Assembly (NCBI GenBank): GCA_032622095.1
Contig: CP136065.1
Span: 22,992,134 to 23,056,133, forward strand
Direction: 5' to 3'
Source: Siphonodentalium dalli
Taxonomy: Eukaryota > Mollusca > Scaphopoda > Gadilida > Siphonodentaliidae
DNA length: 64,000 bases
The position numbers and the translations under genes are program-made. Positions 23,201 through 53,102 of the stretch are shown in pieces. The notes beneath the pieces are model-generated. The model was not told the DNA's origin. It was given only the letters and a program-made list of their open reading frames with translations, and did not search any database. Position 1 is the first letter of the stretch, and every line of letters starts with the position of its first letter.

Positions 23201-26200
23201 CATCAAAGAGAACTGTATTTCGCCTGAGACTTTTAGCCTGAAACCAATCTCTGAAGAGTTCTTCTCCAAATAGATATGTAAGCTAAACTCAAAAAAGGCT
23301 ATTGGCATTGATGGTATCTCAGCAAAAATGCAAAAAATTTGTAACTCAGCAATCCATGTGCCTTTGAGTAATCTTTTTAACCACTCTCTGTCTGTCGTTG
23401 CTTTCCCAGATAGTCTTAAAGTTGCTCAAGTGAGACCTATATACAAGAAAAATGATATTTTGAGTAAGGAATACTACAGGCTTAGTATTTTACCTACTAC
23501 ATGTATATCAAAATTATTTGAGAAAGCGATAAATTCACAGCTACAAATGCATTTTGACTCTATTTTTAACCACGCTTTCTCAGCTTTTAGGAAGCATCAT
23601 GGATGCAGTGACGTAATGTTAAGTGCCATTGAAGACTGGCGCAGGGCACTTGACAAGCATGAAAGTGTTGCCGCTGTAATGATGGACCTTTCAAAGGCTT
23701 TTGATTGTCTACCTCATGATCTTATGTTAGAGAAACTACGTGCATATAATCTTTGTGAAAAGTCGGTGTCTTATATGGGGAGCTATCTTTCTGGTCGCAG
23801 ACAATGCGTTAAACTCGGCTCCAGTGTGAGTTCCTGGAGGTGCATCACCAAGGGTGTACCACAGGGATCCATACTGGGCCCAACCATGTTTAACATTTTT
23901 CTGAATGACATTTTCTGCTTTGTGAAGGACTGCTCCCTTTATAATTATGCAGATGATAACACAATTTCCTTCTCTCACAAGGACCCTGATGTTGTTCGGA
24001 GCACTCTGGAATCTGATAGCCTTCATCTCATTGAGTGGTTTGCACTGAATGGCATGAAGGCAAATCCAGAGAAGTTCCAAGCAATATCATTGGGTCCCAA
24101 AAGTAAATCTATAACTGGCATAAATGCTTCACATCTTATCCCGTGTATCAAGGAAGTGAAATTACTTGGTATAACTCTGGACTGTAAATTGACGTTTAAC
24201 ACTCACATTGATTCGCTATGTTCAAAGGCATCAAGGCAGCTAAATGTCTTAAAGAGACTTGGACATATGCTGACCCTCTCAGGCAAAAAATGTATCTTCA
24301 AATCTTTCATTTTAATTACTGCCCTCTTACCTGGCATTTCTGCAGTGTGTCTTCTACCGACAGGCTGGAGAAAATTCAGGAGAGAGCCTTTCGTTTTATC
24401 TAGAACGACTATACATCTGATTATGACTTTCTCCTAAAGCTTGCAAACTGTGAGCATTTACATCTCAAAAGACTCAGACTTATGGCACTCACTGTTTTCA
24501 AAAATACTAAAGAAGGACATTAGCACTCCTTCCTATTTGGACTGCCTGGTGAAACTTAAACATAGTTCATACTCTTTTAGAAATTCTGAGACTCTGGAAC
24601 TGCCATCACCTGATACTACTACTTTCGGTTTAAGCTTGTTTAGATTCATGGCACCTAAAGTGTGGAATTCTCTTCCAGAGTCATGCAGAACAGCAGAGAT
24701 GATGAAAGACTTTGAATGTATGTTAGAAATCTGGAATGGTTTTAAATGTAAATGCAGTGCCTGTAAGATATCCTAATTATATGTATATGTTTCGTATTTT
24801 AATCCTCACTCTCTGGTCTGGTATCTCTGAATGGAACAAAACGTGTTATCCCGGAATGAAATATGGACTTGTTGTGCACATTACTGTGCCGTATATGAAT
24901 ATACAAATTTGTGTCTTACGCTTTTGATCGAGTCAGGGCTACCTGTCCTCAGTGATTTTATTCGTCTTTTACAATGTTTTAGCTAATATACATGTAATTT
25001 ATTTTTCAGATAGGTTGTGTTTTATTCATGTTACTGTTTATGTACATTTTCATTATTTTACAAGTCAGTTAAGAGCTCAATGCTCATGTTTGTAATTTAA
25101 AATGCCTGACTTTATAAATAAAGCTTTTGAACTTGAACTTTTGAACTATGTCTTGAAAGTAACACTGCAAATCCGAAATGATTTGGCATTTCTTGCAACA
25201 TTTATTAATGTGAATTTCCAACAACACAAAAATTTTAAATCTCACGAGTCGCCATCCGAGTCACAGGCTATAATTCTATAATTAGAAGCACGGATTAGTT
25301 AAGACGTTACGATCTCGGATGGCGACTCGTCAATCTCACACAGGAGCTTTCCATACTTGTCTGTATTATTATTAAAGTAGTGGTATGTGTATTTATCAGC
25401 GGATTTTGATAAAATCTTCCAACAACTGTGAGCATGGGTGAATAGCTAATTTAAAAAAAAATTAAATACACTTAATTTTAAGAGTCAACTAACAGTCATT
25501 AATGTTAACAATATTTGCAATTTATATTAACTCTTAACACCTACCAGAAAGTTTGTATAATTCCATAATTATTTAATAAAAAAAATCCGGTCGGCAAACA
25601 CATGTTGAAAGATGGCCGAAGCAAGGCAAGTAGGTAGTCCTAAATATCACATGACAACACGTGCACGTCACCGAAAACTCGTGGAGTTACTCCTAGTAAG
25701 GTTAGTAGAACAAAGGTAATTCATGCGCATAGTGTAGTTCCGCTTGACCTGATTGTGGAAAGTTTGGATATTCCAAGGGGATTCATGCATGCTTACATGC
25801 TGCTGTCAGATGTTATGGTAGCCATGTCAGTGTTTAAGTTCTGTTGATAACATATGTGATAAACGCATGTGCGTTGGTCATAATTGTTACTTTTATTGAA
25901 AATCTACTCACTCATAGCATTGAGCACCAGCGATGGAACTTAGATGGTGTAAGCCATATCTACTAAGTTCCAATGGATCCAGTCAGGCACAGGTGCCAAA
26001 TGAGCTAAATAGATCATATGAGCTCACATACAGTAATGCCCTCATTGGAAAGCTCTCACCGAGAGCTTTCCGATGAATGGCTTCAAACCATATTTCCGAC
26101 TAAATCCTGAAAAATTACCCATAATTCTGCTGTGGTTAAGTGGTCAATTACTTTGGGCATTACTGTAGCTAAATCAAGCTAAATTTATAATGTGATTTAA

Positions 26201-29200
26201 GTTCATTTCTACATTTCAACATGCATCGCATTATCGTGAAGGGAATCGACATTTACTGGACCAACCTAACAATGAACTTCACAAAAATGCCTGTTGCTCA
26301 TCTACTCACAACAGTTTTGGTTAACGATTTATCAGTATGTTTTTGTGAAGCTTGATGTTGGGTCTAACTAATGAAAGTAAATTCGCATCGCGATTATATG
26401 TGGCATGTGTTGAACTGAGCAAATGGACTGAATATCACATTAAAAATTGTTCAAACAAAAGCAGTGATTGGCTGATCGACTGGACTGTGTAGCCGATTCA
26501 CTCATGGATATGAAGAAATAGTCTCCCACAACCCAAATTTACACCCAACTGCACATAAAATAAATATATATTTTTTTTATTTCAGAGCCTAATTCTCGAT
26601 ATTATAACTTAACATATCATAATAAACACTCCGGAAAAAACGTTATCACTTTACTTCTTTACTTCCATAGTGCATATGCTAATCAAAATTGAAGAGCCCA
26701 TTGTCATTGATAAAAATAAATTGGAGTTATTCTCCTTGCATCAACACGCAAGACATTTGAAAATGGCATGTGTATACATGTATATTGAGGTTCATGACAG
26801 GGATACTTGAATGCTTCCATTTGTGATCCTTTCACATGTCACTCATATTCATCACTATCACTCTGGAAAAAACATATTGTAAAGTTATCATTTCCGATAA
26901 ATAGTATGTAGTAGTATTTATTTGTACAATATATAGATATTTGTAACAATACAATATACAAAAGTGAACATAGGTATATTGTACAGGAGCTGTAATTTAA
27001 GTCATAAAACGACAACGATTATATCAGTTGAAGTGGGTGGGAATAAATTGTCAAGGATTCCACTGTAACAGTAATATTTACATAACAATGATATTGATAT
27101 GCAAAATCTTGTTATTGGGGAGTTATTAATAACAGAAATAAGACGAAATTTGTTCAGTTATCCAGACTTTTATCAAATTAATGTTATGTCGGATGAACCC
27201 ACCTCGAAGACCTTGAGTCACTTCAAAGCAACTGACCACAAATGATTAACCGCATGGTGAGAACACCAAATTCTCCATTTACTGGTCTGCCAAGTGCATT
27301 TACTGGTCTGCCAAGTGCGTTTACTGGTCTGCCAAGTGCGTTTATTCAGTTCATAATATGGGTTATTATAATTAGGTTTACTGATGAAGCCATCGAGCAA
27401 GTTTGTTATGGTTTATTCCAATGTGAGTAGATACATTAATGCCCTAATTAATCGACCTCTTAACCAAAGCAGAATTATGGATAACTTTTCAGGATTTAGT
27501 CGGAAATATGGCTTGTTGCCATATTTCCGACTAAATCCTGAAAAGTTACCCATAATTCTGCTTTGGTTAAGAGATCGATTAATTAGGGCATTACTGTATG
27601 TTAAATCTCAAATATTGATCATCCTGTTAGTCGAATGTCTTTCAAAATTCCTTAACTATAATCTAAAGATATAATACATTAGATCAGCTTGTTTGCATTT
27701 TGTGTAACTGTGTGGTGAAGACAGAGACGCTATGGACATCCCATATACAGAGCACTATGCATAGAGAGGTAATCAATTTTATCAACCATTTCTCTTAAAC
27801 GTCCCTAAACATTGGAACAGGAATCTACTTCAGTTCAGTTGAATGTCAATTTAAGAAGAGCCCCCCCCCCCCCCCCCAGTGGTTTAGTCGGTTAGGTGCA
27901 TGGTGCATTAGGCCAACATTAACCACTCAGTGAAGGCGAAATAGTTTGAATCTCATTAGGTGCAGATTGGTAGTCCACTCACAGGGTAGAAAACCTGATT
28001 GTGTTTCTCGGCAAGTTTGGCAGTTAGCTTCTGTGGGTCTGTGTTTTCTGCACACAGTGAAGTGATTTCCCTGTGACAATAAGCATGTGCGTGTTCTTTC
28101 CTCCACCTGTAAATCGTCCAGCCTTGAAATAGCATGTCTTTCATTTGCAGAATGAGGTCCCCAGAGGGTGAATTTTGTGACGCTATCCCGCACTGCAGGC
28201 TAGTGTTAATTAATTCACCCTCTGGGAACCTCATTCTGCTGAGTCATCAACTGCTATGGGAGACCTAGGATCAGATTGAAGTTCCCCAGTTTATATTTAT
28301 GATATTCACCCATTAGTAACCTTGATTATGCAATTAATCTTCTGCAAATTAGGGGTTATAAAAACTGAACAGAAGGGAAAAATTAACTAAAAACAATGTT
28401 AGTTTGTGACTATAGATACTTCCTACAAGATGAGACCTAAGCAAAATGAGGTCCACATAAGTTGACTTTGGTGGTGCTAGCCTACTGTATGGGGTAGCAT
28501 CACTAAATTCACCTTCTGCAGCCCTCATAATTGGCAACACAATCAGCATTGCAGAAGAAATTTGCTGAAGCAAACTGGGCCATGGCAAAGGGTTGCCGTA
28601 GTGGATTGCCGAAGCCAAACAATCTGAATTAAGAGGGCTGCCTTCTCGAGACCTCAGTCTGCAAACGACATACAGTAATTCCCAAAGTAATTGACCACTT
28701 AACCACAACAGAATTATGGGTAATTTTTCAGGATTTAGTCAGAAATATGGCTTGTTGGCATTCATCGGAAAGCTGTCGGCGAGAGCTTTCCAATGAATGG
28801 CAACAAGCCATATTTCCGACTAAATCCTGAAAAATTACCCATAATTCTGCTGTGGTTAAGTGGTCAATTACTTTGGGCATTACTGTACTCACTATTTCAA
28901 GGCTTGGATGTCGTGATATGGCCTGGTGGCTGAAATGTTGATAAACCCCAATAAACCAATGTTCCCTTTGAGCAGTAATGAGCACAGTGAATTTAATATT
29001 GGAGGCTTCCTCGACTCAAATCAAATATTTTTTAAACCCGAAGCCAAAGAAATCGTAATTTAGGGGTGCTTAATCGGATTGAGTACCCTTAATTAGAGGC
29101 ACGATCGTTAGGGGTGAGACGTGGCTAGAGGTCACCATTGAGGTTTGAACAACTTAAAATGTCCAGCTGTACCAGCCCCTTGAGACTGACCAAATTCCCA

Positions 29201-32200
29201 AGTACGGGAATGTCCAACATATACTGCAAGCTTTCCAACCCTATGTTTGAAAATTGTCCAAGGTATGCCATGTTCCGACTTGTATTCTGAAACAAATTAA
29301 ATGTTAATGTCACACCAACTACTGGTTTGTAATTCCAATTATCAGAACAATTTCCATTCAATTTCTGTTTTGTCTGAAATATCCAACAGCAGGATGAGTC
29401 TGGCAGGAAATGTCCAGCCAGTAACACGCTCTCACCTAGTGCCTTCCCTTATAATAACACTCCGGTAAAAGCCTGATAAAGCATGGTTTACGAGGCTCTA
29501 CTCTGGTCAAATGTAAAGTCACGTTTACAATAAAAATACTCTGCTAAAAGCCCGATAATGAGGATATTCATGATAGAATGAAGTACATGTATATGAATTT
29601 TGTGTGTTCTATATCCAACAGTGTTGAAAAATCTTCTTCCTACAAAAAGATTTGCAAAATGGGGGAAACTTTGTTAGAAAAAATATATTTTACATTTGGA
29701 AGTCATGGATAATTTTGGTTGTTCACTGTTTCTATACTAACAGACATATATATATGTAGACATGCATACCATTAAATTTATAGACATGGGAACATATGAC
29801 CAGAAAGACACTGCATGCTTGTACTTGATTGAGCATTCAGTCGACGGACTGTCAGACTCACTGACTTGTCTTCAATGGCCAAATAAATGATGTGTATTGT
29901 ATTGAAATCATATACATTGTGTAATCAGAAACAATGAGGAACATCAGATTAACAAGGAATGAATTACTTGGACTGATGCTATTTTCTTGCAGAGGTTGAG
30001 ACAGAACACACCAAAAGAAATCACAGGGACTGGTGTAAAAAGGAAAGCCACAGATATTGATGAACTAGTTGCCGAAAAAGTTAAGAAAGGTTAGTGCTTT
30101 AAGCTATGTGCTCTCACACAAGTACCTTCATTGATCTGAATAGAAATTATCGATCCATTCAAGAATGAAAGTTCCATGATAAAAAGAATCATGTTTATTT
30201 TTGTTTTATAGAAAAGTGTTGTATTATACTTACATCACCAAATTAAGTCAGTCGTAACATGAATTCATCACTTTGCGGAAAAATTTATATGTATGCCTTT
30301 GATATCTCTAAGCAAGATTTTAATATGTTTTGTATGTTCACTGAGTTCTGCAACTAAGAAATAATTCAACCATCACTGTTAATATAATCAAAAATTTTAT
30401 AATTGAAGATGGATTCATGGTTCCAGCCATTGCAAATTTTTATAAAACTCAATTTAGCTTGACAACTGGCTTACTTACCTCGAAAATTACAACAGAAACC
30501 ACATAATCCATATCCCTTATAAGATTGAAGAATAAGATGGCTTAGATGGTTTAATAAACATGAAATTGATATCTTGAATAGTATAGCTAAATTTATATAT
30601 ACCTGTACATGTATGTTATATTTAATATATGTTGAAATTAGAGTAACGTTTTTATCTATCTCTCTATTTCAGCTGCAACGGAAGCCAGGTATGTTTGAAC
30701 AAATATTTTTACCTACAATTTCTCTGAAATTTTATGGGGTGTCTATAGGAGATGCCATTCACCTAAAATGGGTTCCTTAAGGCTGCTATCAGGTCGGTAA
30801 AAATGCCAAATAAACTAACTAACTTATTTGAGCTAATATGGAAAACTGGAGCCATATTTTTTATGTGATTTCAATGGTAGACTTTCATATATAAGAGAAT
30901 GCATTGGCACAGGGATTTCTAAAAAATTGAGGAAGCTCCACTCGTGGAAGGATTAATGAAGATATACGTCATGTAGAGATGTTCTATTTGTTGCAGATTA
31001 AGCACCTCATCTCAAAATTCCTGTAAGAAAACGCCGTCTTCATTAGCCGCGTACTCCTCATCCTCAGAAGGAGACGATGATGATGATGATGAATCTGGTG
31101 ATGATAATACAACAGCAGTGAAGAAAGAGTCGTCTGGTGTCCCGTCAGGTAATATGCTTTGAGCTGTTAATAAGAAAGAGTCGACGGGTGTCCCATCAGG
31201 TAATATGCTTTGAGCCGTTAATAAGAAAGAGTTGTCTGGTGTCCCATCAGGTACTATGCTTTGAGCCGTTAATAAGAAAGAGTCGTCTGGTGTCCCATCA
31301 GGTAATATGCTTTGAGCCGTTAATAAGAAAGAGTCGTCTGGTGTCCCATCAGGTACTATGCTTTGAGCCGTTAATAAGAAAGAGTCGTCTGGTGTCCCAT
31401 CAGGTACTATGCTTTGAGCCGTTAATAAGAAAGAGTCGTCTGGTGTCCCATCAGGTAATATGCTTTGAGCCGTTAATAAGAATGAGTCGTCTGGTGTCCC
31501 ATCAGGTACTATGCTTTGAGCCGTTAATAAGAAAGAGTCGTCTGGTGTCCCATCAGGTACTATGCTTTGAGCCGTTAATAAGAAAGAGTCGTCTGGTGTC
31601 CCATCAGGTACTATGCTTTGAGCCGTTAATAAGAAAGAGTCGTCTGGTGTCCCATCAGGTACTATGCTTTGAGCCGTTAATAAGAAAGAGTCGTCTGGTG
31701 TCCCATCAGGTAATATGCTTTGAGCCGTTAATAAGAATGAGTCGTCTGGTGTCCCGTCAGGTAATATGCTTTGAGCCGTTAATAAGAATGAGTCGTCTGG
31801 TGTCCCATCAGGTAATATGCTTTGAGCCGTTAATAAGAAAGAGTCGTCTGGTGTCCCATCAGGTACTATGCTTTGAGCCGTTAATAAGAAAGAGTCGTCT
31901 GGTGTCCCATCAGGTACTATGCTTTGAGCCGTTAATAAGAAAGAGTCGTCTGGTGTCCCGTCAGGTAATATGCTTTGAGCCGTTAATAAGAAAGAGTCGT
32001 CTGGTGTCCCGTCAGGTAATATGCTTTGAGCCGTTAATAAGAAAGAGTCATCTGGTGTCCCATCAGGTAATATGCTTTGAGCTGTTAATAAGAAAGAGTC
32101 GTCTGGTGTCCCATCAGGTAATATGCTTTGAGTCGTTAATAAGAAAGAGTCGTCTGGTGTCCCATCAGGTACTATGCTTTGAGCAGTTAATAAGAAAGAG

Positions 32201-35200
32201 TCATCTGGTGTCCCATCAGGTAATATGCTTTGAGCCATTAATTATACCCCCTTTTAAAAAAGGGGGGTATACTGTTTTGCACCTGTCAGTGCGTCCGTCC
32301 GTCTGTCCGTCGAGCCGTCCGTACGTCCGTCCGATGTCTGTTCATGTCATAACTTGAACAATAGTGCTCGGATCTCAATGAAATTATGTATGGATGTTCA
32401 CTACTATGAGGACATTAAATAGAGGGTTCCATCAGTTTGTTTTCGGATTTTCCATTCTAGAGTTATTCATCTTTGTTTATCTGGAAATGTTGAATTTTTT
32501 GTTCATCTGGTGTCTGTTCATGTCGTAACTTCAACAGTTGTGCTGGGATCTCAATGAAATTTGGTATGGATGTTCACAACTATGAGGACATTAAAAGAGG
32601 GTTCCATCATTTTGTTCAGATTTTCCATTCTAGAGTTATTCATCATTGTTTATCTGGAAATGTTGGATTTTTGGTCCATCTCATGTCTGTTCAGATCATA
32701 ACTTGCATAGTAATGCTCGGATCTCAATGAAATTTTGTATGGATGTTCACCACTATGAGGACATTTAATGGCACATTCAACTGTTTTTTGTTTGTTTTTT
32801 TTTGTGCTATAGTTATTCATCTTCGTTTATATGAAAATGCTGATTTTTGGGTCCATCTGTCTGAGTATAGCAGTCATAAGTTATAGATATGCCCACACTA
32901 GGCGGTATGCCACTAGGGGGTATGTACCGGACGACAGTCCATCTCTTGTTAGGGTCAGCTATCGGCTGAGCCGAGGCAAATGCCTTGATAAAGAGAAGTT
33001 TCTTTGGTTATTACCTAGGCAAATTTGAAAGCCTGTCAAAGTTCTGTGCAAAATTGAAACAAATTGCTGGAAACATTGTCTTGATATTGCACTGTGGAAG
33101 TCTGCAGACAGCAATCATTCTAATGATAACAAGGACTACTGAGATAACAAGAATTATCTTGATAATCAGCAATTTTAAACCAGAACCAAAGTTTGTCATG
33201 AATGGCATGGTAATGGACCAAGTTCCAATTGTAAACTAAAGTTGTATGTGTAGATGTGGTACATAGTGTCTTTCAGGTGACTCATTTTGTTCCAAATGTG
33301 TTAGTTTATACACTGGTGTCTAAAATAAAAAGCAAATCATGAATTATTAAAATTGGTCTGAATACATCATTCATTTTCAAATTGAATTCCAAAGTTTTAT
33401 CTACCATTTCCCATGAAATTCCCTGATAAAATTGGCGATAACAAATTGGCGATAAAAACATCTGTAATGTTACTGCAGTTGTGATACAAGGCACACATGA
33501 CATCATTCACTGGTTCAAAATCATGAATGAACTGACGTCACATCAATCACGTGAAAAATCAAAACAAAATTCCAACTTATATTCTTGCTTTAATACTATA
33601 AAAAAATAGTTCCTAGGTTTTGACATTATTTCATTGCCTCTCATCATGGGCACTATGGTATAACATATCACAATATAACTGATATGTATTTGTTCAGTAT
33701 ATATTATTATACCCCCTTTTTTTTTTAAAAGGGGGTATACTGTTTTGCACCTGTCCGTGCGTGCGTGTGTGCGTGCGTACATCCGTCCGATGTCCGTTCA
33801 TGTCATAACTTGAATAGTAGTGCTCGGATCTCAATGAAATTTTGTATGGATGTTCACTACTATGAGGACATTAAATAGAGGGTTCCATCGTTTTGTTCGG
33901 ATTTTCCATTCTAGAGTTATTCATCTTTGTTTATCTGGAAATGTTGGCTTTTTGGTCCGTCTGGTGTCTGTTCATGTCGTAACTTCAACAGTTGTGCTGG
34001 GATCTCAATGAAATTTGGTATGGAAATTCACAACTATGAGTACATTAAATGGAGGGTTCCATCATTTTGTTCGGATTTTCCATTCAAGAGTTATTCATCA
34101 TTGTTTATCTGGATTTTTGGTTCATCTGATGTCTGTTCAGGTCATAACTTGAATAGTAATGCTCGGATCTCAATGAAATTTTGTATGGATGTTCACCACT
34201 ATGAGGACATTTAATGACACATTCAACTGTTTTGTTTTGGTTTTTTGTTCTATAGTTAATTATCTTTGTTTATATGAAAATGCTGATTTTTGGGTCCATC
34301 TGTCTGAGTATAGCAGTCGTAAGTTATAGATATGCCCACACTAGGCGGTATGCCACAAGGGGGTATGCACCGGACGACAGTCCATCTCTTGTTCAATTAT
34401 ATAACAATGTAGATGCAAGAGATTTGTCCATTGAATTCAATTTCCGTTATGTATATTCGGGTGAACTTGCAGGTTGGGGGAATTTTGCAAATCGAGCTAA
34501 TTGTGTGACACATAAATTTGTAGGTTGGGAGAATTTACTCAAGAAAGCTAATCACCGGACAGAAATCCAACAATGCTTGTATTTAAATAACTCCTAAAAT
34601 GTAATTTGTGTGATGGATTCTGTCACAGCAATGGTAGATAAATGTGTTATATAGTTGGCTAGTTTTCATGGCCACATAGCGACTCAGTAACCAAGGTCAC
34701 CTCGTCGCTATATCCATTAAAACTGGTCTCATCACAATACATGAATCGCTACAAACACATTGTGTATATAACTCAAATTTATCAGCTTAGTAAAATATTG
34801 TTTCACATTAAGCTTTATTTATCATTTCTTGCATATCTGTTAATTCATCCATCAATTTGTCCATCAACATTAAGGAATATCTTCTCTGAAATGATATCAT
34901 CAAATGATCGTTCACAAAACATGTTTTCATCAATATATCGACAAGTCCCTCTTGTTTCCTTTTTGAGCTATGTCAAAATCATTTGATATTATTTTGTGTT
35001 CAATGTTAAAGGGGTACTGTACGCCAAATGTTGTTGGTTTCTATAGTCTCCGAGTCGGAGAATAAGGTAACAATTTTTTCATTATTTGAAAGTCTGTTGA
35101 GTACGAAGTAATGTTACGGATGACAAATTTACCGGAATGCAAAAATACAAATTGTCGTTGTCGAGTAATTTTTGTACAGTTTTCAACCAAATGAATCAAA

Positions 35201-38200
35201 TAAAAGTTATATTATAGGCATACTAGTCCCATATAATCATTTAAGTTGTTGTATCGTCGCTAGTCAGTGAGTGGCTTGAGTGTTCTCCCTGTATCATCAT
35301 AATATTTTAAGCGATCGTGTGTGCGATCGGTTTAACAAATCAGTATCCCTCAATTACTTTGTTTGATTACGGAAATTCGTAATTTAATTGACGCCATTTT
35401 ATGGCTCCAGTCATAAATTCAATTTATATCAAATTATTAACTTTTAAATTATTAAATTTTAAGATAGCCTATTAACCTGAGTGTTTACAGAATACATCTT
35501 CGACTCAAATTACTTATGTTTTCTATATATTATCGATATTAGATCGTTGTTGTCACCGGAAATTTAATGAAAATGGCGTACAGTACCCCTTTAAGTTCTT
35601 GCACACATAAGGGTTGCACAAAAATAGTACCACACAAATCCATAAAGGTAAGGGAGTTCATTTATAAACCCACTCAAGCCTGAGATTAGTGTGCCGGTCA
35701 TTTGCAGAATGAGGTCCCCAGAGGGTGAATTTAGTGATGTTATCCTGCAGGCTAGCATTACTAAATTCACACTCTGGGGACCTCATACTGCTTAGGTCTG
35801 TTCTCTGGAAAGTTCTTTATTGTCAAACTTCAAAAGAAACTTCTTCACAAAGATTACATTTCTTTTTTGGTTTAGTTTCTCCATATCCCCAAATTAGCAG
35901 ACGACACATTGCATAATTGAGGTTCCCAATGGGTGTACATCACAATATTAACCATTTGGGAACTTCAATCTGAGTCTATGTCTCCCATAGCAGATGAAGC
36001 CATGCAGAATGAGGTCCCCAGAGGGTGAATTTGGTGATGCTAACCCGCTATATGGGATATCGTCACTAAATTCACCCTCTGGGACCTCATTCTGCAAATG
36101 ACAGACACACTAAACTCAGACTTGAACCCACTCTCTTTTCAGACTTTTTTGACAATGGTTTCAAAATGGATGCAGGAAACAAAGAAGATGAGAAAAATGA
36201 GAAGCTGGCAGATAAAACAATGGCAGATTCACTGCCTGAAGGGTTCTTTGATGATCCCAAAATGGATGCGAAGGTAATGAGATCTTCAATGCTGGTTGAG
36301 TACACCATCATCGAGATGTACAAAACTGATGTTATGTACCTACATTATATACCCATATGATAAACATGTGCGGTATTGTTGCATGTATTGTGTATTGTGT
36401 ACTGGTATGAATTTGCTATGTGCCTTGAGTCGACTTTTTACTAAATACATGTAATCATTGACTAGCAGTTCCTTAGCAAATATTCAAAATAATAAGTTCA
36501 ACAAGCAGCCTTGTTGTAGGAACATTTCCCTCCAATGAATATGAATCCTTCTGCACTTGTCCATCTGTCATCTGCTTATTTCCTGACACTCCTCCAGATG
36601 AATAATAGACCATTCCATTGTATACTTTTATAACTGAGTGGGAGAATCCACTCAGTAAAGAAAGGATTGATCCACTGGAGTCTGATCATTTGACAAGGTC
36701 ATAAGTTTCTAACTGTCAGGTCCAAGCCTTGAAATAGGGTGTCTGTCATTTGCAGAATGAGGTTCCCAGAGGGTGAATTTAGTGATGCTACCCTGCATAG
36801 CGGGCTAGCATCATCAAATTCACCCTCTGGGAACCTCATTCTGCTGAGGTATAAGCAGAATGAGGTCCCCAGAGGGTGAATTTAGTGATGCTACCCCGCA
36901 TAGCTATGCGGGGTAGCATCACTAAATTCACCCTCTGGGGACCTCATTCTGCAAATGACAGACACCCTATTTCAAGGCTTGGTCAGGTCGATGTTGTTAT
37001 TTGTTTTATATATTATGCAGTTTGAGCAATTCCACAATTACGGCATGCTATCCTATGAGCCAATAATTATGTTGTCAAGGTGACGAATAAATAATTGCCA
37101 AAAAATTTGTAACTATGATTTGTTTACTAAGAAGTTTGTGCACTAACATTATACTATTATACTATGTTTTATCCAGGTTCGGAAGGTAGAATATGTGGAT
37201 AAGATGGAGGAAGAGTGGGAGATGTTCCAGAAGGTAGTCAAGCAAGAAGAGAAGGTGAGACGCCATTTTATGTTCTGTCTGCAGGTCTGCAAATAGTTTG
37301 TCTCACAAGGTTGGCTAGCGTCACCAAATTCACCCTCTGGTGACCTCATTCTGCTTAGGCATCAGCTGCTGTGGGAGACCTAGGATCAGATTGAAGTTTT
37401 CCAGTTGAATTTGGTAATGCTCACCCATTATTAACCTCGATTATGCATTTTATCTTCTGACAATTAGGGGATGTAGAAACTTCCCAGAAGGGAACAGAAG
37501 GGAAAAAGTAACTAAAACAATGTTAAATTGAGACTAGATACTTCCCAGAAGATGAGGCTTAATCAAAATGAGGTCCCTAGGGGGTGAATTTTTTTTTTTG
37601 GCAAATGATTTTAGGTGGCAGCAATAATAATGTTGCTGCCATTTAAAAAAAATAACCTCTAACTCTGGTGGAAGGCTTTCACAATCATGGAACATCATAC
37701 AATAATTCAAACTCCGAGATACAATTGTTCCGATGGACCAATCTCTGAGTCCCAGTTTTGAATAATGGCTGTGATGTATCACACAGTTTGATATTTTACA
37801 TCCGTACTCAGGAATGGCGTATAGCAGCCAAGAGGTTAAACGGACATGATGGCTTATTTGTGCTTCCAACTTTTGTCGACGTAATTTGGAAGGAGGTACA
37901 AGATAGGTTGACAAATACACGAAATATTGATATTCCAACTTCATATGCTCTGAAAAATACTTCCCAGGGTCAAAGCCATTTTCCAGCTGTTTTTAATTTT
38001 TCGCAAATAAGTGAAACAAATGCTCTTTATTTCTCCCATATTGGGAATAAGACTAACACAGAATGCTCTTTTTTTTATACCATGCAGTGCACATGGCTGT
38101 TTGTTTGGGACCCAAACACTGTATTCAATATTGTATTTTTGATGACTTCAATGCGTATTTCTGGGACACAAAATGCCCGTAGAAAGGTAGTTAAAGTATT

Positions 38201-40061
38201 TAACAACCTATTTCGATACTGGGAATAATTCAAAAGCGAATATTATTAGGTGTATATTGGAGTGCAAATCACCATGTGGCTTTAAATGGCAGTAAGCTTT
38301 TAGTTATTACTGACCTCCAATCTTGACATGTTGTAGGTGTCTGAAGCTATTGTCGATGAGGAGGATGAGCAGGCTAATGTTGATAGAAATATTGACGAGA
38401 TCGATGATCAACTGTGAGTATACACATATGTGTTGCTTATATGCTGGACGAGATCAATGTTTTTTTTGGCCAATTCTGATTTTTGTTCTGGTCAAATTAA
38501 AATAACTTTGGTAAAATTAAATCCTCATTTTCCGGGCTCACAACTAACGTTTAATGAATAATTTTTTTTATTTAACATCTGACATTCTACACCATGCCAA
38601 ATCCCTTCAAATACTGTGTCCAAATTTCTTTAATTCCGCCATTCCTACTTGACAATATACCACTACCTACCATCTACCATTCAGACAATGGATTCATTAG
38701 TGTTAAAAGCATGGATTGCCTTGGTTGTAGTTTATAATTTAGAAATAAAAGTTACCAAATTATGAAAATATCCTCAATAATATACTAATAGTATAGTATA
38801 ATGATAGTATGAATATGATATTATCCACGAAACACACTTGTGCGATCCGAGCATTAGTTTATATACAGCACATAAAGAGTGTGCGATAAGCAAAACACTC
38901 AACAATGTGGTGATTTTTTTGGGAGATTGATTCACAGTGAACCACTCAACATCAAAATATTTAGTGGCGAAGATTAACAAGCTCTATAATGGTATATGTT
39001 GTGAACAACATGGCACAGTTTTAACAAAGATTCACTTAGTAGGATCTCGCTGGTATTGAGTGTTTTGCTTATCGCACACTCTTTAAATACTGTATTGTAA
39101 CATAACTTGGCTTTTGTTTACTAACAAGGCGTATGATCTTGACAATAACATGCTATTTATGCGATATTTATAATTAATGGTATAAGAAAAAAATCTGTCT
39201 ATATTTTAATATTCTTTCTGTTTATGGTGGTTTTAACAGACATGACTTATTTAACAGCAATATGCATCGCGAAGGCCATCCATATCTTCAATCCTCATTA
39301 CTGTTCTATTGCATTTGGTGGCCCATTGTTTGATAGTGCACAGTCCTGAGTGCCTTTTGTTAACCATTAAGCTGTATCACCTAATCAATTAACTGACCCG
39401 GTCAATGTGAAAGCAATGTAAATTATTTTAGCAGATGATCGTACTTGTGCTATAAATTTGACTCATGTCACTCTCATTTCAAAATCAATTTGGGATTTTG
39501 AATTAGATTTCCAATTTTTGGGTAAAAACAGCCTAGCATATTAAATAAATGGGATTTCAATATTATCTAAACATTTCCTAAGGGTAATACTCACAAATAA
39601 GTATTTAGTAAAGAAAGGTTTACAGATTTAACCCTTCCATGACTGGGGCTCCCTAAAATTTTGCGAAAACCCTGTGCCAATGCATTCTATTATATATGCG
39701 ATTCTTCCTTATGGAGCCTCGCATATATAAGAGAATACATTTGTTTAACAATATTTAACTTGACCTTGTAAGCCAGTGCATTCTCTTAAATATGGGAGAC
39801 TCGCATATATAAGAGAATTCCCTGGCATGGTATTTTTACTGCTGCACAAGCAGGGCTCCTGTCATGAACTGAATAATAGCTGTAACCATAGTTGTTGTAT
39901 CTTGCAGGAATCGATGGCAAGAAGTTTCTGATCTTCAGGACAAGAAAGCAGAAGTAGTGAAGCATAGTGCTAAAAAATCTCAAAACTCTGACAGTGATGA
40001 TTGTGATGATTTGGATGATTTGAACATTCTTCTTGACTGGCGGTGTAAGAAAGCCTCGTAG
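8186..40061 (+). CDS. ZNF830: ZNF830 (CCDC16/Omcg1) orthologue, whole split gene
   Basis: Eight exons joined with consistent phases encode a protein matching metazoan ZNF830. An N-terminal lysine-rich SKDELRLLMK segment (cf. NQEELRRLMKEK in vertebrates) is followed by a KRKATD segment, a Ser/Asp-rich acidic stretch, then PSDFFDNG, LPEGFFDDPKMDAK, VRKVE...MEEEWEMFQK, SEAIVDEEDEQ, DRNIDEIDDQL and a C-terminal ILLDW. In vertebrates this nuclear protein belongs to the XAB2/Aquarius intron-binding complex of the spliceosome and is needed in early embryos. The visible exons give about 270 residues; the vertebrate protein has ~370. The missing part includes the C2H2 finger, which I could not find in intron 1. 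Exon-by-exon evidence follows. The gene has been swollen by transposons in nearly every intron. Confidence 0.85.
8299..9257. other. ZNF830 intron 1, proximal part
   Basis: No exon or recognisable mobile element was found. A phrase close to CCCARTTCGGGAT recurs a few times near 8589-8815, suggesting a weak local repeat. Confidence 0.5.
9258..9265. repeat. hAT target-site duplication, left copy
   Basis: ATGTAAAT directly before the left inverted terminus; it matches TTGTAAAT at 13739-13746 in 7 of 8 positions. Confidence 0.75.
9384..9485 (+). pseudogene. BED zinc-finger start of hAT transposase (fragment)
   Basis: The frame starts MAEHDEQTSPVWKYFSKK and continues through CAACNICRKEF before a stop at 9483. 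The order VWKYF followed by C-x2-C is the first half of a BED finger, the DNA-binding domain at the N-terminus of many hAT transposases (ZBED-like). No catalytic domain follows. Confidence 0.7.
9486..10244. other. hAT interior, no gene
   Basis: AT-rich stretch with stops in all frames; no transposase domain recognised. Confidence 0.5.
10245..11100 (+). repeat. AGCTCACCTGAG-type repeat with ~200-bp internal units
   Basis: Begins AGCTCACCTGAGACAAAG and CCGGTGGAGCTATAGTCATC, followed by (GTCY)n. It then contains diverged tandem units built around 'TCAGATTTGTTCAAATGAGG' and 'AGGGCCATAACTC'. Similar units recur at 12650-13530, with a second start (CCGGTGGAGCTATAGTCGTC) near 13018. It is nested in the hAT element. 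Confidence 0.7.
11349..11907. mobile_element. family C foldback MITE, diverged copy 1 (with 120-bp duplication)
   Basis: Carries the family C signature GAGGTCCCCAGATGGTGAAT near 11387 and the mirrored terminus TGCAAATGTCAGACATACTA near 11871. It contains a direct 120-bp duplication: the block ending AATTTGCAGAAGATAAAAT is at about 11521-11640 and again at 11641-11760. A related ~600-bp block follows directly, so this locus itself looks tandemly duplicated. Confidence 0.65.
11641..11760 (+). repeat. 120-bp tandem duplication inside family C copy
   Basis: Near-identical to 11521-11640, including GTTCAGTTTCAATGTCCCCC and the shared GCATAATTGAGGTGCTCAAT. Confidence 0.8.
12010..12438. mobile_element. 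family C foldback MITE, diverged copy 2
   Basis: Left part ATCTGGCATTTGCAGAATGA (about 12017), right part CTCATTCTGCAAATGTCAG (about 12401) and a terminal CAGGCTTG near 12438. Its right flank (poly-G then TATATTGGATT near 12513-12535) repeats the flank of the previous copy near 11976-12003. Confidence 0.65.
12650..13530 (+). repeat. second block of AGCTCACCTGAG-type units
   Basis: Diverged ~200-bp units sharing TTCATATTTGGTGTGGATG, TTGTTCAAATGAG and CAGGGCCATAACTC. Nested in the hAT element and interrupted from the first block by the family C copies. Confidence 0.65.
13739..13746. repeat. hAT target-site duplication, right copy
   Basis: TTGTAAAT directly after the right terminus at 13738. 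Confidence 0.75.
13747..14331. other. ZNF830 intron 1, no recognised feature
   Basis: No exon, ORF or known repeat seen. Confidence 0.5.
14332..16189 (+). repeat. six copies of the 14-mer GTAACGTCAGTCAC
   Basis: Exact copies, all on the + strand, at 14332-14345, 14499-14512, 15817-15830, 15832-15845, 16000-16013 and 16176-16189. Two are adjacent, one base apart. The motif contains the CRE half-site ACGTCA. The sequences between copies are not repeats of each other at the same spacing. The role is unknown; see findings. Confidence 0.8.
16903..17075 (+). pseudogene. possible THAP-domain start of a P-element-like transposase
   Basis: The frame reads APKKSKTHCTAINCANARWKND, whose C-x-A-x-x-C-x-N-x-R pattern resembles the first zinc ligands of a THAP domain. 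It is followed ~200 bp later by a clear P-type transposase fragment. The rest of the THAP domain cannot be followed in frame. The similarity is short, so this is tentative. Confidence 0.4.
17224..17873 (+). pseudogene. P-element/THAP9-like transposase, C-terminal fragment
   Basis: A frame from about 17294 reads EDELEYLLTNRLNQDCLENL, then FSCIRSSGGFRDNPE and FRKTLCHCS; after a frameshift near 17440-17490 a second frame (17400-17873) continues with SLPISNALMYIAGYCIF. The TNRLNQDCLENLFS...IR..GG..DNP motif is characteristic of P-superfamily transposases, near the end of their RNase H-like catalytic domain. Most of the protein is missing and no terminal repeats were identified, so this is a relic. 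Confidence 0.7.
17880..18540. other. ZNF830 intron 1 segment, no gene
   Basis: No exon found. It contains TGACGTCA near 18298 and a promoter-like phrase AACATGGCGGCCATG near 18261; neither is linked to a recognisable transcript. Confidence 0.4.
18541..19325 (-). pseudogene. LINE fragment: RNase H domain and C-terminal Cys/His motif
   Basis: The - strand frame (18564-19268, open upstream to ~19325) reads CDCQSAIDTVTGNRL, then HIKWVGGHIDIKENDVADGA and a later C-x-C...H-x4-C segment (SCECGNKETVCHFILEC). The DxQSA and WVxGHxxxxxNxxAD motifs are those of the RNase H domain found in I/R1/Jockey-group LINEs, followed by the usual cysteine-rich C-terminal segment. The RT domain is missing, as expected of a 5'-truncated insertion. 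It is a different lineage from the two CR1-like elements. Confidence 0.8.
19602..22193 (+). mobile_element. Helentron/Helitron-like non-autonomous element
   Basis: Starts TCTATCTATATCTATATTTG followed by GCGACTGTCTGTCTGTC and ends GGGCAACGCCGGGTAACCCTGCTAGT (22168-22193), with a GC-rich subterminal hairpin-like stretch and a CTAGT terminus. These ends are typical of Helentron-type rolling-circle elements in invertebrates. The body consists of diverged ~200-300-bp units each containing CGCCGATTGCCACGAAACTT-like and 'CATCCCCATAATATGAGGAA'-like phrases (near 19800, 19935, 20210, 20505, 20645). No Rep-helicase coding sequence is present. Confidence 0.75.
22194..25147 (+). mobile_element. CR1/L2-type LINE, 5'-truncated
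   Basis: Abuts the 3' end of the Helentron-like element. It holds the second half of an endonuclease, a complete but broken RT domain, and a 3' UTR ending in TTGAACTTGAACTTTTGAAC, the short-repeat tail typical of CR1/L2 elements. Confidence 0.8.
22238..24776 (+). pseudogene. LINE endonuclease-RT with in-frame stops and frameshifts
   Basis: The endonuclease remnant shows GLYRPP, IGDLNID and SDVHN (22238-22642). The RT region has DLSKAFDCLPHDL, GVPQGSILGP and the catalytic YADD within CSLYNYADDNTIS. The frame from 22734 is interrupted by stops at about 22977 (TAA) and 23272 (TAG), then stays open 23328-24437. Further frame changes near 24300 and 24500 link to a C-terminal part with PKVWNSLPES. 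This is more decayed than the LINE at 4.5-8.1 kb. Confidence 0.85.
25244..25330. repeat. 17-bp perfect inverted repeat
   Basis: ACGAGTCGCCATCCGAG (25244-25260) and its exact reverse complement (25314-25330) flank a 53-bp spacer. No transposon ends recognised around it. Confidence 0.7.
25331..26030. other. ZNF830 intron 1 segment, no gene
   Basis: A short ATG frame near 25613 (MAEARQVGSPKY...) has no support as an exon. Nothing else recognised. Confidence 0.4.
26031..26165. mobile_element. family A MITE, copy 1 (left arm deleted)
   Basis: CAGTAATGCCC ... GGGCATTACTG flanked by TA on both sides. Only the right arm is complete; most of the left arm is missing. Confidence 0.85.
26166..27277. 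other. ZNF830 intron 1 segment, no gene
   Basis: AT-rich, no exon, transposon end or RNA gene recognised. Confidence 0.4.
27278..27344 (+). repeat. 3 x 21-bp tandem repeat
   Basis: Unit TTTACTGGTCTGCCAAGTGC(G/A), three copies in a row. Confidence 0.85.
27434..27596. mobile_element. family A MITE, copy 2 (near-perfect foldback, no loop)
   Basis: TA-flanked, CATTAATGCCC ... GGGCATTACTG. The arms are near-complementary over ~80 bp and meet at GGCTTGTTGCCAT; the central GAGCTTTCC segment present in other copies is absent. Confidence 0.9.
27879..27970 (+). repeat. tRNA-derived SINE relic
   Basis: After an 18-bp C run, AGTGGTTTAGTCGGTTAGGT resembles a pol III A box, and AGTTTGAATCTC (about 27942) a decayed B box. 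The spacing is that of a tRNA head. The following CTCACAGGGTAGAAAACCTG could be a SINE body. Moderate support only. Confidence 0.5.
28119..28906. mobile_element. family C MITE, long copy carrying a nested family A MITE
   Basis: Ends CAGCCTTGAAATAG and CTATTTCAAGGCTTG. The first inner hairpin (GAATGAGGTCCCCAGAGGGT mirrored by CCTCTGGGAACCTCATTC) is at about 28152-28238. The right end is split by family A copy 3 between CGACATA and CTCACTATTT, so family A inserted later. Confidence 0.75.
28673..28885. mobile_element. family A MITE, copy 3
   Basis: CAGTAATTCCC ... GGGCATTACTG flanked by TA. Arms ~95 bp with central GAAAGCTGTCGGCGAGAGC. Nested in the family C copy. Confidence 0.9.
29007..29096 (+). 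mobile_element. family E MITE, right-end fragment
   Basis: CCTCGACTCAAATCAAATAT to ATCGGATTGAGTACCCTTAA matches the right ~90 bp of the complete family E copies. Confidence 0.7.
29097..29992. other. end of ZNF830 intron 1, no recognised element
   Basis: No exon found here, although the missing zinc-finger exon must lie somewhere upstream of 29993. A 100-codon - strand frame (29125-29427) resembles nothing I know. The intron ends in ATTTTCTTGCAG. Confidence 0.4.
29993..30089 (+). CDS. ZNF830: ZNF830 internal exon (KRKATD region)
   Basis: Acceptor TTCTTGCAG at 29984-29992, donor AAAG|GTTAGT. The frame opens at phase 0 with RLRQNTPKEITGTG, then VKRKATDIDELVAEKVKK, matching the basic KRKAPDAD segment after the finger in vertebrate ZNF830. 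It ends in phase 1. Confidence 0.8.
30673..30688 (+). CDS. ZNF830: ZNF830 16-bp microexon
   Basis: CTGCAACGGAAGCCAG between TCTATTTCAG and GTATGT. It enters in phase 1 and leaves in phase 2, exactly what joins the exons on either side, giving AATEAR. The perfect phase fit and strong splice signals support it despite the small size. Confidence 0.75.
30870..30955 (+). mobile_element. family Q MITE, right-end fragment
   Basis: TATATAAGAGAATGCATTGG, CACAGGGATTTC and AGGAAGCTCCACTCGTGGAA match the right side of complete family Q copies. It ends ~40 bp before the next exon acceptor. Confidence 0.7.
30997..31148 (+). CDS. ZNF830: ZNF830 exon encoding the acidic Ser/Asp stretch
   Basis: Acceptor TTTGTTGCAG; phase 2 entry gives LSTSSQNSCKKTPSSLAAY, then SSSSEGDDDDDE and KKESSGVPS. 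The donor CAG|GTAATA at 31149 leaves phase 1, and joining to 36143 restores GVPS-DFFDNG, the counterpart of the vertebrate LPNDFF segment. The last 28 bp of this exon are the first part of the 51-bp minisatellite that follows. In-frame read-through past the donor meets TGA after three more codons (NML stop), so the first donor must be used to make a full protein. Confidence 0.85.
31121..32242 (+). repeat. 22 x 51-bp minisatellite made of exon end plus splice donor
   Basis: Exactly 22 units of 51 bp. Each unit begins AAGAAAGAGTCGTCTGGTGT and continues CCCATCAGGTAATATGC, TTTGAGCCGTTAAT. The first unit straddles the 3' end of the ZNF830 exon: 28 exonic bp, then the donor and 23 intronic bp. Every later unit therefore repeats the exon end and a CAG|GTAATA or CAG|GTACTA donor. 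Because 51 is divisible by three, two long ORFs (about 408 codons on -, 406 on +) run through it; these are by-products. The array ends where family F copy 1 begins. Confidence 0.95.
32243..32950 (+). mobile_element. family F repeat element, copy 1
   Basis: Begins TATACCCCCTTTTAAAAAAG and GGGGGTATACTGTTTTGCAC, then (GTCC/GTCY)n and three ~200-bp units around ATCTCAATGAAATTTTGTAT and TATGAGGACATTAAA. It ends ACGACAGTCCATCTCTTGTT. The start is itself a hairpin (TATACCCCC mirrored by GGGGGTATA). It abuts the last minisatellite unit. Confidence 0.8.
32951..33707. other. spacer between family F copies (ZNF830 intron)
   Basis: No exon recognised. Short ORFs here are not supported. Confidence 0.4.
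33708..34393 (+). mobile_element. family F repeat element, copy 2
   Basis: Same organisation and same ends as copy 1, in the same orientation, with a GTGC/GTGT run in place of GTCC repeats. Confidence 0.8.
34394..35005. other. ZNF830 intron segment with an imperfect hairpin
   Basis: No gene. TAGTTTTCATGGCCACATAG (about 34660) is imperfectly mirrored by CGCTATATCCATTAAAACTG (about 34710). Confidence 0.4.
35010..35590. mobile_element. family G MITE, complete
   Basis: AGGGGTACTGTACGCCA at the left and its exact reverse complement TGGCGTACAGTACCCCT at the right, flanked by TTAA at 35006-35009 and 35591-35594. TTAA target duplications suggest a piggyBac- or Kolobok-type mobilising transposase. 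581 bp, no coding capacity. Confidence 0.9.
35675..36124. mobile_element. family C MITE in the intron just before a ZNF830 acceptor
   Basis: CAAGCCTGAGATTAGTGTGC ... CACACTAAACTCAGACTTG with a perfect 8-bp target duplication AACCCACT (35667-35674 and 36125-36132). The right duplication sits in the pyrimidine-rich tract of the next exon's acceptor. Internally it has two head-to-tail hairpins joined by a 'CAAATTAGCAGACGACACAT' core. Confidence 0.9.
36143..36273 (+). CDS. ZNF830: ZNF830 exon encoding FFDNG...LPEGFFDDP
   Basis: Acceptor CTCTCTTTTCAG; entry in phase 1 completes Asp to give DFFDNGFKMDAGNKEDEKNE and then LPEGFFDDPKMDAK, a segment very strongly conserved with vertebrate ZNF830 (LPEGFFDDPEVDAR). 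Exit is phase 0 at AAG|GTAATG. The family C element ends only 18 bp upstream of the exon. Confidence 0.92.
36430..36672. mobile_element. family R MITE, degraded copy
   Basis: TTTACTAAATAC near the left, TCCTTCTGCACTTGTCCAT and ATGAATAATAGACCATTCC inside, and TCAGTAAAGAAAGGATTGA at the right match the complete R copies at 44-46 kb. The flanking TTAA sites are no longer visible. Confidence 0.7.
36723..36981. mobile_element. family C MITE, compact copy
   Basis: CAAGCCTTGAAATAGGGTGT ... ACACCCTATTTCAAGGCTTG with a perfect 8-bp duplication GTCAGGTC (36715-36722, 36982-36989). Two inner hairpins separated by GAGGTATAAG. 259 bp. Confidence 0.95.
37177..37254 (+). CDS. ZNF830: ZNF830 exon encoding VRKVEYVDKMEEEWEMFQK
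   Basis: Acceptor TTTTATCCAG, donor AAG|GTGAGA; 26 whole codons. The product aligns with the vertebrate [20 protein letters not shown] segment. Predicted helical/coiled region. Confidence 0.92.
37277..37605. mobile_element. family C MITE, partial copy
   Basis: Contains 'CACCAAATTCACCCTCTGGT', GACCTCATTCTGCTTAGGC and the CATTTTATCTTCTGACAATT core. Terminal parts are incomplete. Confidence 0.65.
37823..38292 (+). repeat. family H repeat, copy 1
   Basis: ~450 bp closely similar to 43445-43873 in the same orientation. Shared phrases include CATGCAGTGCACATGGCTGT, TTTGTTTGGGACCCAAAC and ACCATGTGGCTTTAAA at the right end. Stops interrupt all frames in at least one copy, so probably noncoding. Confidence 0.75.
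38337..38413 (+). CDS. ZNF830: ZNF830 exon encoding SEAIVDEEDEQ...IDEIDDQL
   Basis: Acceptor ATGTTGTAG, donor CAACT|GTGAGT. VSEAIVDEEDEQANVDRNID then EIDDQL matches the vertebrate [20 protein letters not shown]/EIDEQ segment. It leaves phase 2. Confidence 0.92.
38414..39627. repeat. ZNF830 last intron with a 30-bp perfect inverted repeat
   Basis: TAAAGAGTGTGCGATAAGCA plus AAACACTCAA at 38873-38902 is repeated as the exact reverse complement at 39056-39085, 153 bp apart. Near 39560-39622 a right-end fragment of family R (CATTTCCTAAGGG, AGTATTTAGTAAAGAAAGG) is seen. Nothing else recognised. Confidence 0.7.
39632..39870. mobile_element. family Q MITE, degraded copy in the last ZNF830 intron
   Basis: Starts CCCTTCCATGACTGGGGCTC after TTAA, contains CCCTGTGCCAATGCATTCT and paired TATATAAGAGAA stretches, and ends near CTCCTGTCATGAACTG without a clear TTAA. 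Confidence 0.65.
39908..40061 (+). CDS. ZNF830: ZNF830 last exon (stop at 40059-40061)
   Basis: Acceptor ATCTTGCAG. From phase 2 it reads NRWQEVSDLQDKKAEVVKHS, then NSDSDDCDDLDDLNILLDW and RCKKAS stop. The conserved DSDD...L.DLL..DWR ending of ZNF830 is clear. No AATAAA was seen immediately downstream; the end of the 3' UTR is unknown. Confidence 0.92.
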
Positions 40062-40696: not shown

Positions 40697-40700
40697 TTAA

Positions 40701-41766: not shown

Positions 41767-41837
41767 TTTCCCCCATTTTTTGCAAATAAAAATTATTGCT
41801 TGGTTTATGATCACGACTAAAATATAATGCATGTAGT

Positions 41838-48551: not shown

Positions 48552-48710
48552 CTGAAAAAATATTTAAACTATGTCTAATATCCAATGACATACAGTGTTC
48601 AGACACATTTTAAACACCATTACATGATCAGAATCGAGAAAAACCAGGAGGTCAAAATAAAATGGATGTGTGTTTCTAGTAACAGGTGCTAAATAAATTG
48701 GTACAAGTGG

Positions 48711-52848: not shown

Positions 52849-53102
52849 CAAGCCTTGAAATAGTGTGTCTGGCATTTGCAGAATGGGGTCCCCAGAGGGT
52901 GAATTTAGTGATGCTACCCCGCATAGTGGGCTAACATCACCAAATTTACCCTCTGGGGACCTCATTCTGCTTACACCTCAGCCGAATGAGGTTCCCAGAG
53001 GGTGAATTTGGTGATGATAGCCCGCTATGCGGGGTAGCATCACTAAATTCACCCTCTGGGGACCTCATTCTGCAAATGACAGACACCCTATTTCAAGGCT
53101 TG
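52849..53102. mobile_element. family C MITE, compact copy
   Basis: CAAGCCTTGAAATAGTGTGT ... CACCCTATTTCAAGGCTTG with a perfect 8-bp duplication TCTGTAAA (52841-52848, 53103-53110). Confidence 0.95.

What the first reader, a model, noticed from the sequence alone, without database searches (positions are those of the whole stretch)
31121..32242. Minisatellite that multiplies a ZNF830 exon end together with its splice donor
Twenty-two exact-length 51-bp units each contain the last 28 bp of the ZNF830 exon (KKESSGVPS) followed by CAG|GTAATA/GTACTA and 23 intronic bp. The locus therefore offers 22 consecutive, almost identical 5' splice sites. Only the first keeps the frame: using any later one adds NML-stop (TGA). 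Length variation would change the number of decoy donors. The host gene encodes a spliceosome-associated protein, so a feedback effect on its own splicing is conceivable, though purely speculative.
Basis: partly seen in the sequence, partly recalled or inferred. Interest (0 to 1): 0.85.

Follow-up and report, generated by a model that had tools for sequence, protein, structure and literature searches.

The report
Repeat array multiplying one splice site
In this animal genome, the end of one exon of a gene for a splicing-machinery protein has been copied 22 times in a row together with its splice signal, so the cell must pick the first of 22 nearly identical cut sites; a human gene, IFI6, is already reported to carry this kind of repeat.

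Summary
31121-32242 is 22 x 51 bp without indels. Every unit is 28 bp of exon plus 23 bp of intron and carries CAG|GTAATA (12 of 22) or CAG|GTACTA (10 of 22). The gene is ZNF830 (Pfam ZNF380_CC, E 6.8e-19). Against 71 donors inferred from conserved genes of the same assembly, GTAATA outscores 33 and GTACTA 10, so all 22 are donor-grade: 20.1 per kb, against 1.3 per kb in the rest of the intron. One correction: all 22 donors share a phase. What disables donors 2-22 is an in-frame TGA after GNML, predicted to truncate the protein and trigger nonsense-mediated decay. As 3' splice sites, 22 of 22 units score below all 71 inferred acceptors, so splicing within the array is unlikely. Best reading: a passive minisatellite grown across an exon end, with donor 1 making the functional mRNA. 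Autoregulation is unsupported. A minisatellite supplying multiple splice donors is already reported (human IFI6/G1P3). It is a new member of a known kind, and a natural test of 5' splice-site choice. No RNA, population or related-species data were available.

The parts
27694..27768 (+). ZNF830 exon with C2H2-type zinc finger (LVCILCNCVVKTETLWTSHIQSTMHRE), donor GAG|GTAATC; its start is not settled (an acceptor tried at 27683 scores below all 71 inferred acceptors)
29993..30089 (+). ZNF830 exon (RLRQNTPKEITGTGVKRKATDIDELVAEKVKK), donor AAG|GTTAGT
   Evidence: (boundaries there one base off)
30673..30688 (+). ZNF830 16-nt microexon, donor CAG|GTATGT
   Evidence: inferred from frame and splice sites
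30997..31148 (+). ZNF830 exon whose last 28 bp are the exonic part of repeat unit 1; 152 nt, not divisible by 3, so skipping it breaks the frame
31149..31154 (+). First 5' splice site CAG|GTAATA (unit 1), the only one of the 22 that avoids the in-frame stop
31160..31162 (+). In-frame TGA of unit 1; the same TGA recurs in 22 of 22 units
31121..32242 (+). Minisatellite, 22 x 51 bp: 28 bp exon + 23 bp intron per unit; 12 GTAATA and 10 GTACTA donors
31149..36142 (+). Intron by donor 1 (4,994 bp): the 23 intronic bp of unit 1, units 2-22, two copies of a dispersed repeat and foldback repeats
32241..32950 (+). Dispersed ~710-bp repeat beginning (A)TTATACCCCC and ending CATCTCTTGTT, directly after the array; second copy at about 33707-34395
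   Evidence: (54 of 74 match rows lie outside the array units; 40 of 4,829 candidates scored)
36143..36273 (+). Next ZNF830 exon (DFFDNGFKMDAG...LPEGFFDDPKMDAK), acceptor TTTTCAG (weak: outscores 4 of 71), donor AAG|GTAATG
37177..37254 (+). ZNF830 exon with the start of the ZNF380_CC coiled coil, donor AAG|GTGAGA
39910..40061 (+). Probable last ZNF830 exon (RWQEVSDLQDKKAEVV...LLDWRCKKAS-stop); start approximate; an exon between 37254 and here was not pinned down
   Evidence: adding it raises PF23406 from 68.6 to 72.2 bits

Best explanation
A 51-bp segment spanning the end of the ZNF830 exon that ends at 31148 was tandemly duplicated and grew, by slippage or unequal exchange (inferred), into a 22-unit minisatellite. 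Shown: each unit carries a donor of normal (12) or weak but usable (10) strength by this genome's own standard, and an in-frame stop follows donor 1. Inferred: functional ZNF830 mRNA is made by joining donor 1 to the acceptor before 36143, chosen probably because exon definition favours a 152-nt exon over 203- to 1,223-nt ones and because donor 1 is transcribed first (general knowledge, not tested here). Donors 2-22 can probably bind U1 and be used at a low rate, giving transcripts that end in GNML-stop and are removed by nonsense-mediated decay. The array is most likely a tolerated passenger, not a regulator.
For: Array anatomy and in-frame stop in 22 of 22 units. Gene: PF23406 ZNF380_CC, E 6.8e-19, 68.6 bits against cut-off 28; zinc-finger exon upstream; joined exons match only this locus, 5 of 5 matches, no processed copy seen. 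Donor calibration: GTAATA outscores 33 of 71 and GTACTA 10 of 71 inferred donors; GTAATA occurs in 2 of 71; two other ZNF830 donors are GTAATC and GTAATG, outscoring 35 and 29 of 71. Isoforms: donor 1 leaves the joined exons open; donors 2 and 22, the two translated, stop at GNML, 168 and 1,188 nt before the following exon junction. The exon is 152 nt, so skipping it shifts the frame. Matched stretches of the 134 calibration exons have median 180 nt, longest 435, so a 1,223-nt exon would be unusual. All 6 private variants lie in units 2, 3, 20, 21, 22 (post hoc P about 4e-4), as expected from interior homogenisation. Downstream repeat units are reported to serve as donors in IFI6.
Against: No cDNA or RNA-seq was available; donor use is inferred. 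A passage in PMC6002489 says that of two comparable 5' splice sites the intron-proximal one is favoured, which here would favour unit 22 and a stop. The acceptor before 36143 is itself weak (outscores 4 of 71), so pairing may be inefficient. The junction SGVPS|DFF resembles human ZNF830 only by recalled sequence. The donor set is small, partly paralogous (58 distinct 9-mers), and inferred; out-of-frame controls also gave GT-AG solutions in 16-45 of 94 pairs against 85 of 94 in frame.
Confidence: 0.72

Rival explanations
1. Regulatory decoy: the later donors titrate U1 or divert a set share of transcripts into decay, so array length tunes ZNF830 output, possibly with feedback because ZNF830 belongs to the spliceosomal intron-binding complex.
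For: 22 of 22 donors are donor-grade; a later donor brings a stop; ZNF830/CCDC16 is in the XAB2/intron-binding complex (passages of PMC6315705, and PMC10208982). The 51-nt spacing exceeds the 35-nt U1 footprint (23 + 12) quoted in PMC6002489, so all could be occupied at once.
Against: No conservation, dosage or RNA evidence. The donor core is no more conserved between units than chance (P = 0.25). 10 of the 21 later donors are of the weaker GTACTA type.
Confidence: 0.12
2. Harmful load: the array is a recent expansion that lowers ZNF830 output in proportion to its length and is held back by selection on length.
For: 96% identity suggests recent or continuing turnover; intron-proximal preference predicts misuse.
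Against: No population data; the assembly shows one allele.
Confidence: 0.1
3. Self-healing array: CAG|GT in each unit works as acceptor as well as donor, so splicing from donor 1 to a later unit removes decoys and leaves the normal exon end (as in AGGT-duplication intron gain or ratchet points).
For: AGGT is present in 22 of 22 units; introns across tandem AGGT units are described in fission yeast (passage of PMC4974935). A branch-like TTAAT lies about 25-30 nt before each later CAG (by eye). The scoring is not infallible: an acceptor tried for the zinc-finger exon also scores -4.5, though that exon start is unsettled.
Against: 22 of 22 units scored as acceptors fall below each of 71 inferred acceptors: -4.6 to -7.0 against a lowest of -0.8 and median 7.2. 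A one-unit hop would be a 51-nt intron.
Confidence: 0.03
4. The array is coding: one of its two stop-free frames (411 aa on +, 409 aa on -) is a repeat protein.
For: Two long open frames over the array.
Against: A unit of 17 whole codons leaves a given frame open with chance about 0.44 ((61/64)^17), so 2 open of 6 is expected. The + frame begins right after a stop at 31119-31121. The 8 Pfam hits on the + frame have no stretch passing alone; the - frame has 0 hits.
Confidence: 0.01

Closest known systems
[quoted passage not shown] title seen in reference lists, usage in one sentence of PMC4526556; the paper itself is not held)
   Same: A tandem array whose units serve as alternative splice donors at an exon end; two downstream units are reported to be used, giving three mRNA species.
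   Different: Here the unit is 51 bp (12 bp in IFI6 by recall), each later donor brings a stop codon, the host gene matches at one locus only, and no transcript data exist. Sequence relation to IFI6 was not tested.
Intron gain by tandem duplication of AGGT segments (Rogers 1989; ATP2A1, Hellsten 2011; fission yeast 24-bp units, Zhu and Niu 2013; as described in passages of PMC4974935)
   Same: Tandem units each containing AG|GT.
   Different: Here the duplicated segment spans an existing donor, and the units score as non-acceptors.
Recursive splicing / ratchet points (PMC8605326, passages)
   Same: AG|GT motif in each unit; competition between donors is the central issue.
   Different: No adequate 3' splice site at any of the 22 units.
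Intronic VNTRs that affect splicing, e.g. ABCA7 (PMC5954066, search listing and start of abstract only)
   Same: Tandem repeat inside a gene linked to splicing.
   Different: That one is titled intronic; here the array includes the exon end and the donor.

Membership tests
Minisatellite | Head-to-tail units of roughly 10-100 bp, many copies | tested here: met
   22.0 x 51 bp, 96% matches
Minisatellite | Length polymorphism between individuals (VNTR) | not testable with these tools
   One array in G000; edge-biased private variants suggest turnover
Minisatellite providing multiple splice donors (IFI6 type) | Array spans an exon end and each unit holds a donor | tested here: met
   22 of 22 units CAG|GTA(A/C)TA, donor-grade by local calibration; the exon end itself is inferred from frame
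Minisatellite providing multiple splice donors (IFI6 type) | More than one unit used as donor in mRNA | not testable with these tools
   No transcript data
ZNF830 (CCDC16, ZNF380) | ZNF380_CC coiled coil (PF23406) | tested here: met
   E 6.8e-19, 68.6 bits over cut-off 28; profile positions 1-39 of 81
ZNF830 (CCDC16, ZNF380) | N-terminal C2H2-type zinc finger | tested here: met
   C..C...H...H at 27694 upstream, by pattern only, the one match of that pattern without a stop on either strand of the window
AGGT tandem-duplication intron | Downstream copy works as 3' splice site | tested here: not met
   By score only: 22 of 22 units below all 71 inferred acceptors
Recursive splice site (ratchet point) | Strong pyrimidine-rich acceptor fused to a donor | tested here: not met
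   Same scores
Autoregulatory poison splicing | Alternative use introduces a premature stop | tested here: met
   GNML-stop for donors 2 and 22 by joined translation; unit 1's stop lies upstream of donors 2-22
Autoregulatory poison splicing | Conserved, and responds to the protein's own level | not testable with these tools
   No related species or expression data

The most novel reading that the evidence does not exclude
The array is a functional rheostat: the number and strength (GTAATA/GTACTA) of its later donors set how much ZNF830 pre-mRNA is lost to decay, so repeat length heritably tunes a spliceosomal intron-binding protein and, through it, splicing itself.
Probability: 0.07. Interest if true: 0.85.

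Novelty: new member of a known kind. Interest (0 to 1): 0.42.

Why it matters
How the intron-proximal of two comparable 5' splice sites comes to be favoured is called not known in a passage seen here (PMC6002489). This locus offers 22 near-identical donors at even 51-nt spacing in a gene found at one place, where only the first gives an intact protein. Counting use per unit would separate exon definition and first-come choice (first donor) from intron-proximal preference (last donor), and array-length alleles, if they exist, would provide a natural dose series.

Tried and rejected
Processed (spliced) copy of ZNF830 elsewhere in the genome that would record the junction: none among 5 matches, all at this locus. 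Solved structure of a relative, asked with 70 residues: best E 0.71, unrelated. RNA families in the window: 0 matches at gathering score. Stable RNA structure hiding donors: the fold of 31070-31302 is no better than shuffles (z 0.61, 144 of 200 shuffles fold at least as well). Self-healing or recursive splicing within the array: rejected on acceptor scores. Array as coding sequence: rejected. Selection on the donor core between units: no signal (P 0.25). Origin of the array from the neighbouring dispersed repeat: its start coincides with the array end, but with 2-3 shared bases and no target-site duplication that I could see by eye at the two window copies, nothing could be concluded. A literature search on surplus U1 and competing donors gave one paper, read in passages.

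Limits of the donor calibration. Exon matches came from four Pfam families; I entered 90 of 96 rows of PF12774, 9 of 11 of PF08083, 24 of 53 of PF00118 and 20 of 85 of PF00063, chosen by hand for adjacency and to skip near-duplicates. 94 exon pairs: 71 gave one GT-AG solution, 10 gave two, 13 none. Without the stop filter 85 of 94 gave at least one solution; shifts of the acceptor by -2, -1, +1, +2 and +5 gave 22, 20, 22, 16 and 22 of 94, by +4 and -4 gave 30 and 45 (the last perhaps from the second GT in GTNNGT, my guess), and wrong dinucleotide pairs 18, 30 and 14 of 94. So a minority of the 71 may be wrong. With the 58 distinct donor 9-mers GTAATA outscores 32 and GTACTA 10, and the rest of the intron holds 3 sites instead of 5; with the ambiguous pairs added (n = 81) GTAATA outscores 29. 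In one search exon starts were one base off and its joined frame broke; the donor at 36274 was scored one base off. Both were put right.
Full report
Observation. Tandem Repeats Finder reports one array at 31121-32242: period 51, 22.0 copies, 96% matches, no indels, score 2055. Cutting it into units shows 22 of 22 of exactly 51 bp, 13 distinct types, 10 variable columns of 51. Each unit is 28 bp of exon ending CAG followed by 23 bp of intron beginning GTAATA (units 1, 2, 4, 7, 12, 13, 14, 17-20, 22) or GTACTA (the other ten). In the 2.23-Gb, nine-contig assembly all 11 matches to a two-unit probe lie in this array.

The gene. The translated exons match Pfam ZNF380_CC (PF23406) at E 6.8e-19, 68.6 bits against a cut-off of 28. 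A C2H2-type exon lies upstream at 27694, and a probable last exon ends LLDWRCKKAS at 40061. The start of the zinc-finger exon and one exon between 37254 and about 39910 were not pinned down. A search of the whole assembly with the joined exons gives 5 matches, all at this locus. ZNF830/CCDC16 is a member of the XAB2/intron-binding complex (passages of PMC6315705, and PMC10208982). The junction joins SGVPS to DFFDNGF; the human protein reads SSVLPNDFFST at the matching place, but that is recalled and was not tested. That the organism is an animal is inferred from the gene content (for example a secretin-family receptor); the species is not known.

Consequences of donor choice. All 22 donors are in the same phase because 51 is 3 x 17. 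Donor 1 leaves the joined exons open. Donor 2 and donor 22, the two I translated, both read ...KKESSGVPSGNML-stop, 168 and 1,188 nt before the following exon junction; the stop of unit 1 lies before donors 2-22, so the others must do the same. Decay is expected by the usual 50-55-nt rule (recalled). The exon is 152 nt, not a multiple of three, so skipping it also breaks the frame. Only donor 1 therefore gives full-length protein.

Are the later donors real donors? I inferred introns in conserved genes of the same assembly (TCP1 chaperonins, myosin heads, dynein AAA_6, PRP8 PROCN) by requiring GT, AG and frame to fit the profile positions: 71 of 94 exon pairs gave a single solution, 10 gave two, 13 none. 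By the matrix from the 71, CAG|GTAATA outscores 33 of 71 donors and CAG|GTACTA 10 of 71; with the 58 distinct 9-mers it is 32 and 10 of 58. The array holds 22 sites at or above the GTACTA score in 1,094 bp (20.1/kb); the other 3,900 bp of the intron hold 5 (1.3/kb); the window, both strands and array included, 1.27/kb. The donors are thus usable and densely packed. The controls (acceptor shifts 16-45 of 94, wrong dinucleotides 14-30 of 94, against 85 of 94) show that a minority of the inferred introns may be wrong.

Can units act as acceptors? All 22 score -4.6 to -7.0 bits, below each of the 71 inferred acceptors (lowest -0.8; median 7.2). The acceptor before 36143 scores 2.7, weak but inside the range (outscores 4 of 71). 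Splicing inside the array, which would remove decoys without trace, is therefore unlikely, although introns over tandem AGGT units are known elsewhere (PMC4974935, passages). One caution: an acceptor tried at 27683 for the zinc-finger exon also scores -4.5; I take this to mean that the exon starts elsewhere.

History. All 6 variants found in one unit only lie in units 2, 3, 20, 21 and 22 (post hoc P about 4e-4), as expected when the interior is homogenised by exchange or slippage. The CAG|GTA core never varies, but with 10 variable columns this has probability 0.25 by chance, so it is no evidence for or against function. The array ends where a dispersed ~710-bp element begins.

Mechanism. Two principles conflict here. 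Of two comparable 5' splice sites the intron-proximal one is favoured (stated in a passage of PMC6002489), which would pick unit 22 and destroy the message. Exon definition (general knowledge) favours donor 1: a 152-nt exon against up to 1,223 nt, where matched stretches of the calibration exons have a median of 180 and a maximum of 435 nt. Since the gene is found at one locus and its frame is open through the exons joined by donor 1, I infer that donor 1 wins most of the time. This step is not shown.

Known or new. [quoted passage not shown] I saw its title in reference lists and, in the introduction of PMC4526556, the statement that two downstream repeat units are used as donors giving three mRNA species; the paper itself is not held. 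The present array is a new member of that kind. Among the rows shown by my literature searches (25 of 31, 15 of 32, 8 of 8, 12 of 38, 6 of 6) none was recognisable by title or abstract start as such an array in ZNF830; hits below the listings were not seen.

Verdict.

Noticed in passing
window 40697-41768: A second large minisatellite, 33-bp units with a 99-bp higher-order period, just downstream of the probable last ZNF830 exon.
   Followed up: no
window 49852-50207: A 32-bp minisatellite of 11.1 copies, 97% matches.
   Followed up: no
window 30673-30688: An inferred 16-nt microexon in ZNF830 between two ordinary exons; its donor CAG|GTATGT outscores 70 of 71.
   Followed up: partly
window 32241-32950 and 33707-34395: Two copies in one intron of a dispersed ~710-bp element with internal ~174-bp repeats and a hairpin-like start (TATACCCCC...GGGGGTATA); 40 of 4,829 genome-wide candidates were scored.
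   Followed up: partly
window 35708-35794, 36003-36100, 36757-36960, 52881-53073: Foldback repeats of the type GCAGAATGAGGTCCCCAGAGGGTGAATTT...CTCATTCTGC recur in and around this gene; seen by eye and in part by TRF.
   Followed up: no
window 46771-48609 (-): 613-aa open frame with a secretin-family seven-transmembrane domain (PF00002, E 1.5e-19).
   Followed up: partly
window 23274-24434 (+) and 4883-7189 (-): Reverse-transcriptase-like open frames; the first matches PF00078 at E 1.7e-30, the second was judged only by eye from the ORF list.
   Followed up: partly
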